Part shown: positions 72 to 7,526 of the stretch, one piece after another
How positions within the stretch are numbered: the stretch's first letter is position 1
Layout of the letters: each line of letters begins with the position of its first letter
Source: JAFGIT01 sp016929465 [NCBI: Candidatus Coatesbacteria bacterium]
GTDB lineage: Bacteria > B130-G9
DNA: 7,593 bases
NCBI GenBank assembly: GCA_016929465.1
Contig: JAFGIT010000357.1
Location: 1 to 7,593, forward strand
Direction of reading: 5' to 3'
Program-made: the position numbers and the translations under genes
Notes under the pieces: model-generated
The model's database searches: none
Told to the model about the DNA's origin: nothing
The model's input: only the letters and a program-made list of their open reading frames with translations

Positions 72-87
72 GGAAAGCCCACCCTAC
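72..87 (-). repeat. GTAG-headed repeat, unit 2 (degenerate)
   Basis: On the minus strand this reads GTAGGGTGGGCTTTCC. It matches the unit at 212-227 in 15 of 16 bases, and the two copies lie exactly 140 bp apart. Here the second arm of the palindrome has decayed, because the bases beyond the centre no longer complement the GGTGGGC arm. It looks like an old copy of the same element. Confidence 0.5.
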
Positions 88-228: not shown

Positions 229-1128
229 CTAGCCAAAGAGGGCGTATATGTCAGGCCAATAGACGAGTATCAGGATGCAGGCTATCCAGAGGAAGATGTC
301 GATGATTAGTGGGGCGTCGTCGAGGAGTATCTGTGCTGGGCTGCCGCCCATCTCCTTCCGATAGACGAGGTATAGATACCTCAAGAGGCCATATAGCACG
401 AAGGGGACCGTGATGTAGAGATACTTCGTGCCGAACTTCTGTGCGGTCTCCGGGGACATCGTGTAGAGCGTGTAAGCCAGGATGGTCGAGGCAGTCACGA
501 TGCTGATCATCTGGTCGAGCAGCTGCGGCGTGTATTCCTTCAGGATTATCCGATGCGATATCGCGTCTTCACCCAGCGAGACTAGCTCATGGCGCCGCTT
601 GGCGATGGCCAGAAACAGCGAGAGGAATATGGTGCACGCTATAAGCCAGTTCGAGAATTCGACGTCCACGACGACCGCACCGGCAAGGGCACGTATCACA
701 AAGCCGGCCGAAATGGTCATGATGTCCAGCATGACGATGTGCTTCAGTTTGTATGAGTAGAAGACCTGGATGACCAGATAGAGGGCTGAAACGAAGGCGA
801 AAGCCGGCGATATATGATAGGCAGCCGCGAGGGCGATGAGTGCCAGGACTGAGATTGCGGGCATGGCGAAGGAGGGGGCGAGCTTGCCTGCAGCAATCGG
901 GCGCAGCCGCTTCTTCGGGTGCATCTTGTCCTTTTCGATGTCCGTTATATCGTTCAGGACATAGACGAAGCCAGATAGAACGCAGAAGACAGCAAATCCA
1001 ATGAGCGCTCTCAGGAAGGGTTCTGCATCGAAGAGGTGCCGCGAGAAGACTATGCCCCCAAAGAGCAGGACGTTCTTAGTCCATTGCTTGGGCCGCATCG
1101 AGTGCAATAGCAGAATTATCTTCGTCAT
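229..1128 (-). CDS. UbiA-family polyprenyl-phosphate phosphoribosyltransferase (DPPR synthase-like)
   Basis: This is an integral membrane prenyltransferase-fold enzyme of 299 residues, a normal length for the family. Known members (mycobacterial Rv3806c type) transfer 5-phosphoribose from PRPP to a polyprenyl phosphate, the first step to lipid-linked ribofuranose or arabinofuranose. Visible marks are the RPKQWTKN motif at residues 12-19, the first Asp-rich motif NDITDIEKD at 59-67 followed by a basic RLRPIAAG stretch, the second motif YSYKLKHIVMLD at 124-135, and the C-terminal SPAQILLDDAPL at 263-274 typical of this subfamily and not of quinone-type UbiA. About nine hydrophobic segments are seen. 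The start is supported by AAGGGA at 1135-1140, six bases upstream. It is the last gene of the operon, 41 bp after the HAD gene. Substrate chain length cannot be read from sequence, and another UbiA activity is possible but less likely. Confidence 0.9.
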   Translation of the reverse strand: MTKIILLLHSMRPKQWTKNVLLFGGIVFSRHLFDAEPFLRALIGFAVFCVLSGFVYVLNDITDIEKDKMHPKKRLRPIAAGKLAPSFAMPAISVLALIALAAAYHISPAFAFVSALYLVIQVFYSYKLKHIVMLDIMTISAGFVIRALAGAVVVDVEFSNWLIACTIFLSLFLAIAKRRHELVSLGEDAISHRIILKEYTPQLLDQMISIVTASTILAYTLYTMSPETAQKFGTKYLYITVPFVLYGLLRYLYLVYRKEMGGSPAQILLDDAPLIIDIFLWIACILILVYWPDIYALFG

Positions 1129-1134
1129 GTCTCG

Positions 1135-1140
1135 TCCCTT
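1135..1140 (-). promoter_or_regulatory. Ribosome binding site of the UbiA-family gene
   Basis: AAGGGA on the minus strand lies 6 bases before the ATG at 1128. It is the clearest Shine-Dalgarno in the minus-strand operon. That fits this gene having a 41-bp gap upstream, where the other genes overlap or nearly touch. Confidence 0.55.
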
Positions 1141-1169
1141 CGCACCTCAGGCGGTTTTATTCCCTCAAC

Positions 1170-1907
1170 TCAAGCGCCGTTCCGCGGAAAAATGGTCAGC
1201 AGGTCTTCAGCCCTCTTTATAGTGTAATCTGGATTCGTTTCGCAAGTCTCATCAATCCGGTAGTGCGCCTGCTGCCTCGAGAGAATGCCCATCATCCCCA
1301 GCTGCTTTGCTGGCACTATATCCCAATCGAGCCGGTCGCCGACCAGGGCCACCATCGTCGGATGTGCCCCTGCCAGCTCACAGGCCTTCCTGTAAAGCGC
1401 GAGATCGGGCTTGTGCAGCTCGACCTCATCCGAGATGACGATGTGGTCGAAGAGCTCGATTATCCCTGAATCTATCAGCTGCTTCCTCTGAGTCCTTCCG
1501 GCCCCCTCGGTAATAACGCCGAGCTCATACGCCTTCTTGAGCTCTGTCAGGACGTCGAACATGCCAGGATAGAGCGTCAGCCCTTCCTCCCTGAATTTGG
1601 TGTATAGCTTGCCGACATCCTCGAACCGGCTCGCCAATCCAGGGCGAAGACCGTTGAGAAATAGCTCGGTCCTCCTCTTGCGGTCCTTCAGCAAGTTGCG
1701 CGGAATTTTGCCCTGCACGTCCTGGTACTCCAGATCGACCAGGAATTCCCATTGAGCCTTCAGGAATTCATCGAGCGGGAGCGGGCACTCGTCCCTGAGC
1801 GCTTCCCAGAGCTTGGTCATTGCATGGTCAACCGAGGCCTCGTAGTCGGTAAGAGTGCCGTCCAGGTCGAAGAATATAGCGCGAATATCAGATATAGCTG
1901 CTGCCAT
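1170..1907 (-). CDS. HAD-superfamily hydrolase (probable phosphatase)
   Basis: This is a cytosolic-type haloacid dehalogenase-fold protein of 245 residues with no signal peptide. All four HAD motifs are present: DLDGT at residues 14-18 (nucleophile Asp14, acid/base Asp16), Thr133 in VITEG, Lys166 in LHKPD, and GDRLDWD at 190-196 with Asp191 and Asp196. A helical cap sits between motifs I and II, as in YjjG/phosphoglycolate-phosphatase relatives. Motif II has Glu after the Thr where most relatives have Asn. The ATG lies 2 bp after the stop of the GT-C gene, so translation is probably coupled, and the local Shine-Dalgarno is weak. From context I infer that it may dephosphorylate the phosphoribosyl lipid made by the next gene, or a sugar phosphate feeding that pathway. 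HAD substrates cannot be read from sequence, so a general housekeeping phosphatase remains possible. Confidence 0.85.
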   Translation of the reverse strand: MAAAISDIRAIFFDLDGTLTDYEASVDHAMTKLWEALRDECPLPLDEFLKAQWEFLVDLEYQDVQGKIPRNLLKDRKRRTELFLNGLRPGLASRFEDVGKLYTKFREEGLTLYPGMFDVLTELKKAYELGVITEGAGRTQRKQLIDSGIIELFDHIVISDEVELHKPDLALYRKACELAGAHPTMVALVGDRLDWDIVPAKQLGMMGILSRQQAHYRIDETCETNPDYTIKRAEDLLTIFPRNGA

Positions 1908-1909
1908 AA

Positions 1910-3496
1910 TTATCGTCCATCGTTCCTAACATAGAGCGTGCCCCCGTCGAATTTTCCCTCCGCCTTTATGTAACCATGAGAATTGGCATAGTCAATGAAA
2001 GGAGTCTCCAGACCAGCCTGGAATCCGACCAGAATCGCGGCTGGCGGCTCCCTGTCGAGCACGGCTGCGAGCGTTTTCGGCGAAGCGCTGACATAGCCCC
2101 TTCTCTGGTCCTCCGTGAGTAGATCCCAGACCCTGTAGAAAAATGGGCCAGTCTCCAATTCCCTGTAGATGGGGATGCCAGCTTCGATAGCGTAGATTGG
2201 GGCGAGAGTCGCAATTTTGTCGCTTCCCTCAGGTGATCCGATCCGCTCGCGGATGGCATGAGCCGTCCGGTGTGTCGATATGCCCACCCAATTATCTAAT
2301 TTATTCAGTTTATGTATCTGTCTCAGAAGCACTGGACCACCAAAAATCGACATGACCACGACGGTGCAGATGATGAAGGCATCAAGAGCTCGCCTCTTAG
2401 CAATCGGAACCGCCTTATATAGAGCACAGATCAGGATCAGAAGGAATGGCACAGGGGCAGAGAAATAGTGGAAAAATAGGGGCGTTGGTTGGACCGCTAT
2501 CGCCAGCGTGAGCACTATCATCAAGGCAGAAAACAGCACATCCACTCTTGAAAGAATTGAAAGCCAGGCGTCGCGCTCCTTGGATGTGAGGAACCGAATG
2601 ATGATACAGATGGCCAATAGGAATAGCGCCGCATTGGTCGGTTTGAGAAGCAGCTGGAGGATGAAAGTGGCCTTGGTCCAGAACGACATCCCGATTTGGT
2701 AGCCCTGTGCCTCTCTCCATGCTGTATTCGCTGCGTGAAAGCCTAGATTGTTGAAATAGGATGCCCTAAAACCGGCGCAGAATAGGACGAAACCAGCCGG
2801 CAGAAAAGCGACCGCCAAGCCAGCCCACGCGGGATAGGACACCCCGCGCACACGTGCCTTAAAATCCACAGTTCTGGGTACAAGCAAGCCAGAGATTATG
2901 AGTGCTACCGGCGTCGCCAAATAAGACAGCTTGGTGCCGAAAGCAATCGCCGCCGCAGCTCCGGCCAGAAATACGTACATCCCCTTGATACCATCTTGGG
3001 AAGTCCCTTTCAGCAAAGAGTGGAATGCCAGGATGGAGAAGGAAAGAGGCAGCACCTGGTTCGACGCGAGGGGCGCGATGTGCATGATGGGGTAGTTTAG
3101 AACAAAGAGCACGATAAAGAGCATCGCCATAAAGGAATCCCTCAGGATTAGCCTCAGTATCGCAAACAATGAAGAGCAGGCAATCAGCATCAGGGCAAAT
3201 GAACACATCCTTGCCCAGAGAAGGTAGTGCGATGTCCCCGTCAGGTTGTATATGGCGCCGTATATATACGGAAGATACGGCATTTGGAAGTAAGGAAAGT
3301 CGCGATAGACCGAGCCATCCATGGCGAGCATACCGGCCGTGATATACGCCTGCTCATCGTTGACCGCGCCATCGATCATCGCCCGGGAGAACAGGCCCAG
3401 GGCCAGCGCCGCGAAGACTACGATTACTATGGAGGTCTTGAGCTTGCGGGTGGGGCCATCTCCCTCTGAAGCCGATGCTCCATGGTCCGGCATCAT
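1910..3496 (-). CDS. Multi-spanning GT-C fold glycosyltransferase (GT39/ArnT-like membrane protein)
   Basis: The protein has 528 residues with roughly ten or eleven hydrophobic segments. After the first segment (about 21-40) comes an outer loop with Asp-Glu in NDEQAYITAG (residues 46-55), the place of the catalytic acidic residue in GT-C enzymes. It is followed by the aromatic stretch YRDFPYFQMPYLPYIYG at 64-80, common in GT39/dolichyl-phosphate-mannosyltransferase-like proteins. A soluble tail of about 130 residues (from about 398) should lie on the outer side. Enzymes of this fold use polyprenyl-phosphate-linked sugars as donors, and the UbiA homologue in this operon makes that kind of lipid. 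The upstream GT4 gene overlaps it by 4 bp (ATGA). Two ATGs stand in tandem (3496 and 3493). A GGGAG sits 3 bases before the first and 6 before the second, so the start is uncertain by one codon. Sugar and acceptor are unknown. Confidence 0.85.
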   Translation of the reverse strand: MMPDHGASASEGDGPTRKLKTSIVIVVFAALALGLFSRAMIDGAVNDEQAYITAGMLAMDGSVYRDFPYFQMPYLPYIYGAIYNLTGTSHYLLWARMCSFALMLIACSSLFAILRLILRDSFMAMLFIVLFVLNYPIMHIAPLASNQVLPLSFSILAFHSLLKGTSQDGIKGMYVFLAGAAAAIAFGTKLSYLATPVALIISGLLVPRTVDFKARVRGVSYPAWAGLAVAFLPAGFVLFCAGFRASYFNNLGFHAANTAWREAQGYQIGMSFWTKATFILQLLLKPTNAALFLLAICIIIRFLTSKERDAWLSILSRVDVLFSALMIVLTLAIAVQPTPLFFHYFSAPVPFLLILICALYKAVPIAKRRALDAFIICTVVVMSIFGGPVLLRQIHKLNKLDNWVGISTHRTAHAIRERIGSPEGSDKIATLAPIYAIEAGIPIYRELETGPFFYRVWDLLTEDQRRGYVSASPKTLAAVLDREPPAAILVGFQAGLETPFIDYANSHGYIKAEGKFDGGTLYVRNDGR

Positions 3497-4680
3497 CGAC
3501 TCCCGGCGATCGTCTCGAGGAGCGAGAGTATTCTCTCCGCCCGCTTCCGATAGGTGAAATGAGCGGCCGTCTCGAGCCCACTTCGGATTATATTCTTTCT
3601 TAGCTCACGGTTCGAATAAACCATCCGGATCCCCTCGGCGAGAGCCTCTGGATTCTCTGGCTCGACCAGCACCGCGTTCTCCCTGTGCCTTAGTATCTCA
3701 CGCAGTGCGGGCACATCGCTCGCGACGACGGGAATGCCCGCGGCGAGATATTGGAAGAGCTTTAGCGGGCATGTGAATAGATATGGCTCGATCGAATGTC
3801 CAGCAGGGATGGAAATAACTGCTGCTGCGAACCGCTTCGATGACAGGAAGTCCATGACTTCCCCCGGCGGGAGATGGCCCTTGAGCGCAAGGCTGCCCTC
3901 TAAAAGCGAATATTGGTCCATGAGCTCCGACCTTCGAATTGCCGTTCCACCAGAAATCGATCCAGCTATCTCGAGTTTGAAGCCATCGAGAATCTTGAGC
4001 GCCTCGAAGAGCGTGTCGGTCCCCTTCCACCCGCCAAGGCTCCCCACGTACACGATCAGCTTCGGGACTTCACCAATTCCCTCAGCGCCCTCCACCTCGC
4101 TCGCTTTCAGCGGCTCAGGCCCGCCGTTGCGCGCGACGATCATGTTCTGCTCTCGGCCGAACATTGTGCGAGCGAGAGCGGCAGTGGCATCGGTGGTGCA
4201 GACAATGCCCCGAGCCTTGTCGAATACTTCACTCTCTGACTTGAAGGTCCTCATCGCCCTGCGCCGGGCACGTCCCGGCGGCAGTTCTGAGAGGCGTGCT
4301 TCATCCGATACGACCATGAATGCGACCTTGTGGGCTTCGTATATGAGCGGGACGCCTGAGCCCCGACAGGTTGGCAAGAGCGATTGTGCGATTCTCAAAT
4401 TCCTGCAATAGACAAAAGCATCTTTTAATTCGATTTTTGCGATTGCCTTACGGGCGACAACTGCGGCATCCATGTCTTTCTCTGCGATAATCTCCATGTT
4501 CTCTGGCAGTTCCAGGCCGTAGAATTCGCCGATCTTGTCTCGCTCTTCAGCTCCTACAGAATCTACGAGAAGCCGCACCTCTGCTCCGAGCTTTGCCAGC
4601 TGGCAGACGGTGTTAATCGCCTGAATTGTGCGGGCCTTTGCCTCCGGAAGAGTGGCTTCGTGAACGTAAATGAGACGCAT
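3493..4680 (-). CDS. Glycosyltransferase family 4 (GT-B fold)
   Basis: This is a soluble or membrane-associated GT-B glycosyltransferase of 395 residues that would use a nucleotide sugar in the cytoplasm. The C-terminal donor domain is clear: ARNGGP at residues 183-188, the strand-loop YVGSLGGWKG at 211-220, KGHLPPGEV at 267-275, and CPLKLFQYLAAGIPVVASD at 304-322. The residue that is normally the second Glu of the EX7E donor-binding motif is Gln310 (codon CAA), and the first position is Phe302. The enzyme may therefore be altered in donor binding, although several GT4 subfamilies lack the first Glu. The N-terminal half (1-170) is the more variable acceptor domain. The gene begins 6 bp after the pilM-like gene and overlaps the GT-C gene by 4 bp, so the three are almost certainly co-transcribed. 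The donor sugar is not predictable. Confidence 0.9.
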   Translation of the reverse strand: MRLIYVHEATLPEAKARTIQAINTVCQLAKLGAEVRLLVDSVGAEERDKIGEFYGLELPENMEIIAEKDMDAAVVARKAIAKIELKDAFVYCRNLRIAQSLLPTCRGSGVPLIYEAHKVAFMVVSDEARLSELPPGRARRRAMRTFKSESEVFDKARGIVCTTDATAALARTMFGREQNMIVARNGGPEPLKASEVEGAEGIGEVPKLIVYVGSLGGWKGTDTLFEALKILDGFKLEIAGSISGGTAIRRSELMDQYSLLEGSLALKGHLPPGEVMDFLSSKRFAAAVISIPAGHSIEPYLFTCPLKLFQYLAAGIPVVASDVPALREILRHRENAVLVEPENPEALAEGIRMVYSNRELRKNIIRSGLETAAHFTYRKRAERILSLLETIAGSR

Positions 4681-4686
4681 CGCAGC

Positions 4687-5787
4687 TCAATGCCCCAGAA
4701 GCCGTCTGTGCCCCGGCAATGGAGATGCTGATTCTCCCCCATACTTCGCGCTCAAGAATCTCGCCCGTAGCGCAAGCCCCATCGCCACGGCGAATATCGA
4801 CGAAGGCGGGGCTGGCATGTTTTTCGACAGGCTTCTGAATTGATGAGCCAACCCACGGAATGGGTCCAGGACGGTCACGCCAAACCTGAAGAGCGGCGTC
4901 ATTGCATCGACTATGCACGGAAGGGCGGCCGCGCCGCCACATACGAAGACCCTGTCGAAGTGCCAAGTCTGAGAATGTAGCCTCGCACGCCAAACCAGGT
5001 CCCGGATCTGACCTACGAAGGCCTCAATCTCGCTCTGGACGCTATTAACGGCATAGTCTGATGTCAGACCAACCGCCTCACTCCCCGCCAGGAGTGAAAC
5101 CGCCGGCCACAGGGCGATTGAAAGCTTGTTGCGCAAGGCCGAAACCACCAGGCGACACCCGACCTCCATCTCATCGTAGAAATAGAAATGACCGTTTCTT
5201 AGAAGCGTGATTTTCGTCAGTGACTCCCCTATATCAAGGATCGCTATCAGCCGGTCGTCGAACCGCTGCGAGGCACGCTGATATGTCGCCGCCAGGGCCA
5301 GGCCAGCGGCCTCCAGTTCGACCGGATTCTTGTGCGATGACATCAACACCTCATCGTAGAATTCGCACATCGACCTGCGTATGCCGACGAAGGCGAGCTC
5401 GCTGCCATTGGATTTGGCGTTCACCACCGGATTGGTGGTCGTGAATCCCCTTATGTAGTCCTGTTCGTCCAGCGGAAGGTATTGCTCTGATTCTGCTTCT
5501 GCTGCCGATATGAAGTCTCCTTCTGAAACACTTCGCAGGTCTATCCGCTTCAGAATAACGTTTGGCCCGCCATATACGCCAAGCGCAGATTGGGCCGTGC
5601 GTCTCATCCTGCGGGGAAAGATTCGCTTTAGGGTCCTGACCAATGGTTGTCGTCCCGCTACATTGTCACGGGGGATCTCGACGCAAGTGCCCGTCGATAG
5701 AGTCCTCCCCCTTCGTGGGTCGTAGCGGAGCTCAACCAATTTCACCAAATGGTGGCCGATGTCTATGCCAAAAGTGCTTCTGTGCAT
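4687..5787 (-). CDS. pilM: PilM-like actin-fold pilus assembly protein
   Basis: This 366-residue protein belongs to the actin-like ATPase superfamily and resembles PilM, the cytoplasmic ring component that binds the PilN tail in type IV pilus and related machines. The phosphate-1 loop is FGIDIGHHLVKLVEL (residues 6-20). The phosphate-2 loop is ILDIGESLTKITL, and the adenosine motif is VFVCGGAAALPCIVDAM. The stretch from about residue 74 (VILKRIDL, then EAESEQYLPLDEQDYI) is the PilM 1C-type subdomain, and it argues against FtsA or MreB. The loop that usually reads GSSS is GHH here, so nucleotide binding may differ. No pilN, pilO, pilP or pilQ follows; glycosyltransferases do. The ATG at 5787 is the only standard start after an in-frame stop. 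It has no good Shine-Dalgarno, since only GGA touches it. The actin-fold and PilM-family call is firm, but its exact machine (pilus, type II secretion-like or divergent) is inferred. Confidence 0.85.
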   Translation of the reverse strand: MHRSTFGIDIGHHLVKLVELRYDPRRGRTLSTGTCVEIPRDNVAGRQPLVRTLKRIFPRRMRRTAQSALGVYGGPNVILKRIDLRSVSEGDFISAAEAESEQYLPLDEQDYIRGFTTTNPVVNAKSNGSELAFVGIRRSMCEFYDEVLMSSHKNPVELEAAGLALAATYQRASQRFDDRLIAILDIGESLTKITLLRNGHFYFYDEMEVGCRLVVSALRNKLSIALWPAVSLLAGSEAVGLTSDYAVNSVQSEIEAFVGQIRDLVWRARLHSQTWHFDRVFVCGGAAALPCIVDAMTPLFRFGVTVLDPFRGLAHQFRSLSKNMPAPPSSIFAVAMGLALRARFLSAKYGGESASPLPGHRRLLGH

Positions 5788-5999: not shown

Positions 6000-6791
6000 A
6001 TGAAGATTCTTCTTGTCAATGACGACGGCATCAACGCGGACGGGATAATATCCCTTGAGAAGGCCCTGTCCGCGGTCGCAGAGGTTTACGTCGTCGCTCC
6101 CGATGAGGAGCGAAGTGCCTGCTCTCACAGCATTACACTCAGGCGCCCGATCTCGGCCACTAAACTATCGGACCGCAAGTATTCAATTGACGGTGTTCCT
6201 GCTGATTGCGTAAATCTGGCGCTGTTGCATCTGTTTGCGGATGTTGATTTCGACCTAGTCCTGTCGGGCATAAACAACGGACACAACACCGGCGAGGACA
6301 TCAGCTATTCCGGCACGGTTGCTGGTGCTATTGAGGCGACTTCACTGGGTCGGCGCGCGATGGCGCTTTCGATAGGCTATTCAGAGCGGCCTGATTTCGG
6401 CGCCGCGCGCGAATTTGCACGGGAATTCGTTGTGCGATTTCCGATGAACGAGCTTCCGCCGATATGTTTTCTCAATATAAATTTCCCGAAGGGCAAGGGT
6501 CCGTTTCCGGTGATGGTGACCAGGCAAGGCCGGCTCCATTTTGAGAACAGCGTCACGCAGATCGGTGATGACGCCGCCCTGGATGGAACCGCCGGCGCCG
6601 TCAGGAGGTTCAAGATAGGACGGACAACCGAGCGTGGTCTTGCCGACGAGGGCACCGACGTTTACGCCGTCAACAGGGGCTACATATCGATAACGCCGAT
6701 GCACGTGGACCTGACGGATTTGCGAGCTTTCGAAAAGACTGAGCACCTGGTCTTTCAGGCGATGGGCTCAGAGGCCAAGAACAGCAAATAA
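6000..6791 (+). CDS. surE: 5'/3'-nucleotidase SurE
   Basis: SurE is a cytosolic, divalent-metal-dependent phosphatase that hydrolyses nucleoside 5'- and 3'-monophosphates. Some members also cleave short polyphosphate. At 263 residues it has the usual length. The metal-binding residues are in place: Asp8 and Asp9 in LLVNDDGINADGI, Ser39 in ERSACSHSIT, and Asn92 in SGINNGHN. The family-typical stretches YSGTVAGAIEA (103-113) and ITPMHVDLTD (231-240) are also present. It is the first gene of the plus-strand unit, behind a clear promoter, and is followed 27 bp later by a VTT/DedA-family gene. No protein-L-isoaspartate methyltransferase gene (pcm), its frequent partner elsewhere, is found next to it. 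The function is well supported, though the physiological substrate here is not known. Confidence 0.97.
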   Translation: MKILLVNDDGINADGIISLEKALSAVAEVYVVAPDEERSACSHSITLRRPISATKLSDRKYSIDGVPADCVNLALLHLFADVDFDLVLSGINNGHNTGEDISYSGTVAGAIEATSLGRRAMALSIGYSERPDFGAAREFAREFVVRFPMNELPPICFLNINFPKGKGPFPVMVTRQGRLHFENSVTQIGDDAALDGTAGAVRRFKIGRTTERGLADEGTDVYAVNRGYISITPMHVDLTDLRAFEKTEHLVFQAMGSEAKNSK

Positions 6792-6818: not shown

Positions 6819-7526
6819 GTGCTCAAGTGGCTTGCATCTATACCACATCAACTCGTTGAGTGGACGATTGCGTGGGCGGATACCGCCTACAGCGTCTGGG
6901 CGCTTTTCTTCCTGGCGTTCGCCGAGTCGAGTTTTTTCCCGATACCGCCCGATGTCCTGCTTATCGCGATCGGGATGGCGAAGCCGCAATCGGCCCTATG
7001 GCTCGCTTTGGTTTGCACGATAGGCTCCACGGTGGGCGGGATGTTCGGCTTTCTGATCGGCAAGATAGGTGGGAGACCGCTTCTTCTCAAGATCTTCAAG
7101 GAGAAGAAGGTCGGTGTGGTGGATAAATACTTCGAGAAGTATGGTGTGATGGCCGTCGGAGTGGCCGGTTTCACGCCCATTCCCTACAAGGTCTTCACCA
7201 TATCGGCGGGCGCTTTCCGGATGAATTTCACGAAATTTGCGCTGATTTCTGTGCTGAGTCGCGGGGCGAGATTCTTCCTGGTGGGCCTTGTTCTGATGTT
7301 CATCTGGCCACTGGTGCGGGATTCAATGCCGAAAGAGCAGCTTATGGGCTATCTGAATTATTTTTCGGTGGCCTTCATAATCCTCTTGATCGGCGGCTTC
7401 TATTTTGTGAAAGTAATGGGGAAACGACACGCTCAGAAGTCTAGAGAGCTGGAGGCCCAGAACTTGCAGGAGACTGCGGAGCAGGGAACAGGTTCGGATA
7501 GAACTTCTGATGCGGATGTCTGTTAG
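6819..7526 (+). CDS. VTT/DedA-family membrane protein (YqaA-like)
   Basis: This is an inner-membrane protein of 235 residues with a VTT (SNARE-associated/DedA) domain. Family members are linked to lipid flipping, including recycling of undecaprenyl phosphate or phosphatidylethanolamine, and to membrane homeostasis. Signature parts are [17 protein letters not shown] (34-50, with Glu36 and Asp45 as the conserved acidic residues), the Gly-rich [17 protein letters not shown] (69-85), [15 protein letters not shown] (117-131), and the Arg-bearing [11 protein letters not shown] (146-156). The last hydrophobic segment ends near 200. The remaining 35 residues form a polar, charged tail ending in Cys, without a recognised domain. 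It starts with GTG, 27 bp after surE, and is probably co-transcribed with it. YqaA-type proteins are shorter DedA relatives, and its transported lipid is unknown. Confidence 0.9.

What the first reader, a model, noticed from the sequence alone, without database searches (positions are those of the whole stretch)
229..5787. A pilM-like gene heads an operon for lipid-linked pentose and glycosyl transfer
Seen: pilM, GT4, GT-C, HAD and UbiA genes lie on one strand with gaps of 6, -4, 2 and 41 bp, so they very likely share a transcript. Known: Rv3806c-type enzymes make polyprenyl-phosphoryl phosphoribose, GT-C enzymes use polyprenyl-phosphate sugars, and some Pseudomonas aeruginosa strains decorate type IV pilins with D-arabinofuranose through a mycobacterial-like lipid-linked pathway and a GT-C transferase (TfpW). 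Inferred: this operon may encode glycosylation, by a pentofuranose, of a pilin or pilus-linked surface polymer, with the PilM homologue tying it to the pilus machine. I know of no described system with this exact gene order.
Basis: partly seen in the sequence, partly recalled or inferred. Interest (0 to 1): 0.65.

Follow-up and report, generated by a model that had tools for sequence, protein, structure and literature searches.

The report
Orphan PilM-like gene heads pentose-lipid operon
In a poorly known bacterial phylum, a gene related to a type IV pilus part stands at the head of an operon that probably makes a lipid-bound ribose used to decorate surface sugars; the sugar chemistry is of a known kind, while the role of the pilus-like gene is open.

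Summary
The five genes, strand and gaps are as reported. The window is one whole contig of a metagenome-assembled genome from a phylum with four held genomes. Two relatives in a sister genus keep the order PilM-GT4-HAD-UbiA without a GT-C; in a third genus HAD-UbiA and the PilM-like gene lie on different contigs. UbiA is, by model score and motifs, a polyprenyl-phosphate phosphoribosyltransferase. With the HAD phosphatase, a GT-C-like enzyme (indirect evidence) and a Wzx-type flippase divergent from pilM in the sister genus, this resembles the published three-component pathway for adding pentofuranoses outside the cytoplasm (PMC11127046). No DprE1-type oxidase was found, so ribofuranose, or another epimer, fits better than arabinofuranose. 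Pilin glycosylation is not supported: other clusters carry their own PilM-domain proteins, no pilin was seen nearby, and this PilM has no PilN neighbour and forms its own deep clade. Verdict: new variant of a known kind; the unusual part is an orphan PilM-like protein linked to lipid-linked sugar synthesis in two genera.

The parts
4687..5787 (-). PilM-like actin-fold ATPase, 366 aa, no PilN partner; invariant C-terminal tail LPGH(R/K)RLLGH in 4 of 4 phylum members
   Evidence: Pfam PilM_2 73.3 bits; TIGR01175 82.4 bits, below its 133 cut-off; profile matches solved PilM 3jc8 E 6.8e-24; alignment A1
3493..4680 (-). GT4-type glycosyltransferase, 395 aa, presumed cytoplasmic (no hydrophobic segment in a crude scan)
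   Evidence: Pfam Glycos_transf_1 79.1 bits; orthologue 6 bp after PilM in G001 and G003; no orthologue in G002, best match E 3.5e-17 and partial
1910..3496 (-). Probable GT-C membrane glycosyltransferase, 528 aa, DExxY motif; present at this place in the window genome only
   Evidence: No Pfam/NCBIfam match; motif and hydrophobic segments; three distant homologues, of which one passes PMT_2; AlphaFold model unusable, pLDDT 42.9
1170..1907 (-). HAD phosphatase, 245 aa; proposed 5'-phosphatase of polyprenyl-phospho-ribose-5-phosphate
   Evidence: HAD_2 82.7 bits; TIGR02253 139.5 bits, below cut-off 169.75; DLDGT motif at 14; directly upstream of UbiA in 4 of 4 genomes
229..1128 (-). UbiA-family polyprenyl-phosphate phosphoribosyltransferase, 299 aa
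   Evidence: NF008977 299.1 bits, cut-off 234; M. tuberculosis enzyme 8j8j E 1.2e-41; NDITDIEKD at 59, KRRHEL at 177
6000..6791 (+). SurE nucleotidase, divergent; probably not part of the system
   Evidence: Pfam SurE 183.5 bits
6819..7526 (+). DedA/VTT-domain membrane protein; whether it is part of the system is unknown
   Evidence: Pfam VTT_dom 61.7 bits; weak, below-cut-off match to undecaprenyl-phosphate transporter UptA, 45.9 of 250 bits

Best explanation
The operon encodes a variant of the three-component pathway for adding pentofuranoses outside the cytoplasm. [quoted passage not shown] A Wzx/MATE-type flippase, divergent from pilM in the sister genus and on another contig in this genome, would turn the donor outward. 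A GT-C enzyme, here in the operon and in the relatives presumably one of many elsewhere, would add the pentose, most likely ribofuranose, to a surface glycan. The GT4 enzyme probably builds part of that glycan in the cytoplasm. The PilM-like protein is not the pilus PilM; its most likely role is a cytoplasmic ATP-binding adaptor for a membrane complex of this operon. Shown by sequence: family of UbiA, HAD, GT4 and PilM; conserved neighbourhood. Inferred: donor, sugar, acceptor, flippase role, GT-C role and any PilM role.
For: UbiA passes two phosphoribosyltransferase models and keeps the loop II and loop IV residues studied in C. youngae ORF15 and M. tuberculosis. HAD is directly upstream of UbiA in 4 of 4 genomes. 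The published enzyme ORF15 joins a HAD phosphatase and this kind of UbiA in one chain, and two distant genomes here carry HAD-UbiA fusions confirmed by family search. The flippase gene (PF01943) is divergent from pilM in 2 of 4 genomes and has orthologues in the other 2. No DprE1-type oxidase among the ten PF01565 loci examined of 13 matched places. PilM-GT4 linkage in 3 of 4 genomes, window included, at 52-69% identity to the window.
Against: The flippase is not in this window and GT-C is not in the relatives' loci, so no single locus holds all three components. UbiA fails a third phosphoribosyltransferase model, NF008976 (165.6 of 474 bits). The window HAD is not of the type fused to UbiA elsewhere: those match PF12710 (one of two over its cut-off), the window HAD matches HAD_2 better, and tblastn of the window HAD found 0 of 38 distant UbiA loci. 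In G002 the PilM-like gene lies away from HAD-UbiA and no GT4 orthologue was found. GT-C assignment is indirect. Phylum genomes hold 17-32 PMT_2 matches each, so a GT-C neighbour is less telling. A terminator-like hairpin, of a kind expected by chance, sits at the PilM-GT4 junction.
Confidence: 0.6

Rival explanations
1. Pilin or pilus glycosylation with D-arabinofuranose, as in Pseudomonas TfpW strains, with PilM tying the enzymes to the pilus machine.
For: PilM family match; pilus/secretion-type clusters exist in the genome; the lipid-linked pentose core is well supported; a UbiA orthologue is proposed to serve pilin arabinosylation in P. aeruginosa (passage in PMC11127046).
Against: No DprE1-type oxidase found; no pilin gene seen beside the operon; GT-C missing from the sister loci; other clusters have their own PilM-domain proteins.
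Confidence: 0.07
2. The glycosyl genes form an ordinary cell-surface glycan module and the PilM-like gene is only a neighbour that shares a promoter, with an unrelated job.
For: PilM and HAD-UbiA lie on different contigs in G002, where PilM sits between an ABC-2 transporter and a symporter; only two genera show the linkage.
Against: Linkage kept with the same 6-bp PilM-GT4 gap in 3 of 4 genomes across two genera while the genes outside the operon differ.
Confidence: 0.28
3. UbiA and HAD act in another lipid or nucleotide pathway (for example a different prenyl transfer with a housekeeping nucleotidase), not in pentofuranose transfer.
For: HAD scores best against TIGR02253 and YjjG nucleotidase models, both below their cut-offs; function untested.
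Against: Of the 19 NCBIfam models listed for UbiA, the two over their cut-off are phosphoribosyltransferase models (299.1 of 234 and 221.7 of 207 bits).
Confidence: 0.05

Closest known systems
Three-component pentofuranose side-chain system of Citrobacter youngae O1/O2 (ORF15 PRP-PPPRS, ORF14 MATE flippase, ORF12 GT136), PMC11127046
   Same: Phosphoribosyl UbiA with a HAD phosphatase, a Wzx-type flippase beside the operon in the sister genus, and a GT-C-like enzyme in the window; no DprE1 found.
   Different: HAD and UbiA are separate genes and the HAD is of another subgroup than those found fused here; the flippase is unlinked in this genome; the GT-C is not shown to be GT136; a PilM-like gene and a GT4 lead the operon.
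Mycobacterial decaprenyl-phospho-arabinose pathway (Rv3806c, Rv3807c, DprE1/DprE2)
   Same: Same first enzyme family.
   Different: HAD instead of Rv3807c, which is unrelated to HAD phosphatases; no DprE1-type oxidase found.
P. aeruginosa group IV pilin arabinosylation (TfpW)
   Same: Phosphoribosyl UbiA and a GT-C-like enzyme.
   Different: No pilin gene seen adjacent, no DprE1 found, GT-C not conserved at the locus.
Type IV pilus PilM (solved structures 3jc8, 5eou, 2ych; their organisms are recalled, not from a call)
   Same: Family match along nearly the whole length.
   Different: No PilN neighbour, separate clade on a long branch, distinct conserved C-terminal tail.

Membership tests
Polyprenyl-phosphate phosphoribosyltransferase (PPPRS/DPPRS) | Score over a curated equivalog cut-off | tested here: met
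   NF008977 299.1 of 234 bits and NF008978 221.7 of 207; a third model, NF008976, is not met (165.6 of 474)
Polyprenyl-phosphate phosphoribosyltransferase (PPPRS/DPPRS) | Loop II N-D-x-x-D-x-x-x-D and loop IV R-x-x-E | tested here: met
   NDITDIEKD at 59; KRRHEL at 177, compared with residues listed in PMC11127046 section 7
Polyprenyl-phosphate phosphoribosyltransferase (PPPRS/DPPRS) | PRPP-dependent activity | not testable with these tools
   needs an enzyme assay
HAD phosphoribose phosphatase (PRP) | HAD catalytic motif with loop I aspartate | tested here: met
   DLDGT at 14, GDRLD at 190
HAD phosphoribose phosphatase (PRP) | Sequence similarity to HAD domains fused to PPPRS | tested here: not met
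   Two fused HADs match PF12710 (40.7 and 25.3 bits, cut-off 27), window HAD matches HAD_2; tblastn of the window HAD: 0 of 38 distant loci, 3 of 3 positive controls. No published PRP sequence was at hand, so PRP membership proper is open
Three-component pentofuranose system (PMC11127046) | Donor synthase linked to phosphatase | tested here: met
   HAD directly upstream of UbiA in 4 of 4 genomes
Three-component pentofuranose system (PMC11127046) | Linked MATE/Wzx flippase | tested here: inconclusive
   Adjacent to the PilM gene in G001 and G003, on another contig in G000 and G002
Three-component pentofuranose system (PMC11127046) | GT-C (GT136) transferase | tested here: inconclusive
   GT-C-like by motif and distant homologues only; no useful PDB match; GT136 membership not tested
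TfpW-type pilin arabinosylation | DprE1/DprE2 epimerase | tested here: not met
   PF04030 0 of 4, but that model also misses two DprE1-like genes; of 13 PF01565 places in 4 genomes, the 10 loci examined are GlcD-like, MurB-like or a PF02913 oxidase. DprE2 not tested; genomes 83-95% complete
TfpW-type pilin arabinosylation | Transferase gene next to pilin gene | tested here: not met
   No pilin-like ORF seen by eye in the window or relatives' flanks
Type IV pilus PilM | Pfam PilM_2 gathering score | tested here: met
   73.3 of 27 bits
Type IV pilus PilM | NCBIfam TIGR01175 cut-off | tested here: not met
   82.4 of 133 bits; the PilM-domain protein of the genome's own pilus-type cluster also fails, 89.5 bits, so this does not discriminate
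Type IV pilus PilM | PilN encoded downstream or fused | tested here: not met
   GT4 follows in 3 of 4, a symporter in 1 of 4; of 23 distant loci with a callable PilM, 12 have a strict NLLP-type start downstream, 17 by eye with a relaxed motif, 2 are cut

The most novel reading that the evidence does not exclude
A PilM-like actin-fold ATPase has left the pilus and secretion machines and serves as a dedicated cytoplasmic scaffold or switch for a membrane glycosylation complex that makes, flips and uses polyprenyl-phospho-pentose, through contacts other than PilN.
Probability: 0.17. Interest if true: 0.6.

Novelty: new variant of a known kind. Interest (0 to 1): 0.36.

Why it matters
It places the recently defined pentofuranose side-chain pathway in a deep, uncultured phylum (probably B130-G9, listed also as Ca. 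Cuxufiota; passage in PMC11382960), with separate HAD and UbiA genes and no DprE1 found, which predicts ribofuranose-type decoration. If the PilM link is functional, it would be a case of a type IV pilus platform protein used for lipid-linked sugar transfer, a role for which the literature searches here found no report (listings only).

Tried and rejected
AlphaFold models of the GT-C (single sequence, pLDDT 42.9) and of PilM (three sequences, pLDDT 38.6) were too poor; no fold search was made. GT-C against the PDB gave one meaningless match by sequence (E 0.18) and none by profile. PF04030 as the sole test for DprE1 was rejected, because two DprE1-like genes next to distant UbiA genes match only PF01565; PF01565 was used instead. 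The names DprE1-like, GlcD-like and MurB-like are mine, from domain content and look.

A third PilM-PilN-like protein in the cluster on G000:C413 (L063) was suspected by eye, but Pfam gave only TPR repeats, so it is not counted. Origin of the orphan PilM by recent duplication of the genome's pilus-type PilM was rejected: the orphan clade (4 rows) and the pilus-type PilM (2 rows) sit on separate long branches (3.43 and 2.75 changes per column). The tree of 28 rows was flagged by the program for long branches meeting the orphan group and for the odd letter make-up of the window row, so its deeper place is unsure. Twelve UbiA loci were picked for long open frames, so the 4 of 12 with a HAD motif are a biased sample; the 26 best-ranked distant loci had 0, with only about 1.5 kb of flank seen. 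Of 26 distant PilM loci (those given as loci), three (L014, L018, L023) dropped out of the PilN-neighbour count because no PilM ORF was called. The own-genome search with the window PilM finds only itself, so the other PilM-domain proteins were found through PF00437 and PF05137 clusters, not by similarity.

Literature: PMC11127046 was read in abstract, passages and sections 5, 7, 9 and part 1 of 2 of section 12; PMC11841053 and PMC11382960 in passages; other papers only as search listings.
Full report
What is there. The window is a whole contig, C88, of a metagenome-assembled genome of 3.19 Mb in 423 contigs, 86% complete. surE and a DedA-type gene point the other way. Promoter- and terminator-like sites are at chance level; one terminator-like hairpin lies at the PilM-GT4 junction. 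The phylum is represented by four held genomes, G000 to G003. A review lists phylum B130-G9, alias Candidatus Cuxufiota, with three species from hydrothermal, deep-sea vent and freshwater sediment (passage in PMC11382960); that the window belongs to it is inferred from the B130_G9 relative.

Conservation. In G001 and G003 (one sister genus) the order is PilM, GT4, HAD, UbiA, with the same 6-bp PilM-GT4 gap, protein identities 52-76%, and no GT-C between GT4 and HAD (alignments). The window's GT-C has no match at E 1e-3 in G001, G002 or G003. In G002 (a third genus) HAD and UbiA are again adjacent, but PilM lies on another contig between an ABC-2 transporter and a symporter, and no GT4 orthologue is found. 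So HAD-UbiA is linked in 4 of 4, PilM-GT4-HAD-UbiA in 3 of 4 (two genera), and GT-C in 1 of 4. Outside the phylum, the best PilM match among the other 94 of 98 genomes is E 2.6e-26 at 24% identity. A scan of GTDB species contigs returned 2 loci, both records of phylum members already seen (that scan depends on two short peptides, and records very near the window may be left out).

Enzymes. UbiA is over the cut-off of two of three phosphoribosyltransferase models listed, its alignment matches the solved M. tuberculosis enzyme, and it carries the loop II and loop IV residues studied in C. youngae ORF15. Such UbiA genes are common: 109 of 290 genomes, the four of the phylum included, have one at E 1e-30 or better. 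The HAD enzyme has the catalytic aspartate motif. A fused HAD-UbiA enzyme is the published donor synthase, and two distant genomes here also have HAD-UbiA fusions confirmed by family search, one of them beside a DprE1-like gene. The window HAD is of another HAD subgroup, however: tblastn finds it in 0 of 38 distant UbiA loci against 3 of 3 positive controls. The GT-C assignment is indirect: DExxY motif, eight hydrophobic segments in a crude scan and three distant homologues at 23-24% identity, one of which passes PMT_2, one of which falls below it and one of which has no match.

Flippase and sugar. A flippase gene (PF01943 in G001; 89% identical in G003) is divergent from pilM in G001 and G003. 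Orthologues are at G000:C136 (66% identity, at a contig end) and G002:C76 (56%), near a phosphotransferase-like gene in both (by eye). This could supply the published second component. PF01565 matched 13 places in the four genomes; the ten loci examined are GlcD-like, MurB-like or a PF02913 oxidase, not DprE1-like. The three places not examined are second pieces of two of these genes and one contig-edge piece in G003. Kelly and co-workers report DprE1/E2 homologues in systems with arabinofuranose and an ORF13-type epimerase for xylofuranose, so ribofuranose, or xylofuranose if an SDR elsewhere serves, is the better guess. The genomes are incomplete (83-95%), so absence is not proof.

The PilM-like protein. 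It matches PilM along nearly its whole length, but it is not the only PilM-like protein of this genome. A cluster on G000:C179 encodes a pilus-type ATPase and, by eye, platform and pilin genes with a 594-aa PilM-domain protein; G000:C385 encodes a secretion-type cluster with a PilM-PilN fusion. The orphan proteins form one clade on a long branch, with the program's warnings on long branches and letter make-up. Elsewhere PilM is usually followed by PilN: of 23 distant loci with a callable PilM, 12 by a strict motif and 17 by eye with a relaxed one, 4 without, 2 cut. All four orphans end in LPGH(R/K)RLLGH. What it binds is unknown. A cytoplasmic ATP-binding adaptor for the operon's membrane enzymes is the most likely role, by analogy to PilM and GspL (recalled), and a mere shared promoter is a real rival.

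Verdict. Observation confirmed; pathway type supported; pilin-arabinose reading not supported. The enzyme set is already described in print without PilM (PMC11127046). Paper searches for PilM with such enzymes gave nothing to the point (listings only). Hence a new variant of a known kind with a modest interest score, and a bolder PilM reading kept open.

Noticed in passing
L058:9985-11838 (G000:C385): The secretion-type PilM-PilN fusion carries an MshE-type c-di-GMP-binding domain in its middle (NF053729, 54.3 bits, cut-off 38, residues 231-283).
   Followed up: no
whole genomes G000-G003: Very many PMT_2-type GT-C matches at E 0.001 or better, some below the family cut-off: 32, 31, 31 and 17 in G000, G001, G002 and G003.
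   Followed up: no
L129:2-3151 and L130:3809-7145: The flippase orthologue lies near a phosphotransferase-like gene in G000 and G002, whereas in G001 and G003 it lies next to the PilM-like gene.
   Followed up: partly
window 72-87 and 212-227: Short direct repeat GGAAAGCCCASCCTAC at the left end of the contig, 2 copies where shuffles give 0.
   Followed up: no
L130:2261-3778: A GT-C-like gene (PMT_2 23.2 bits, 26.3, cut-off 26.1) lies near the flippase orthologue in G002.
   Followed up: no
L124:812-4339: In a distant genome a HAD-UbiA fusion gene is followed by DprE1-like and SDR-like genes, a compact arabinofuranose-type set (the SDR by eye).
   Followed up: partly
window 6819-7526: DedA-type gene beside the operon has a weak match to undecaprenyl-phosphate transporter models, far below their cut-offs.
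   Followed up: no
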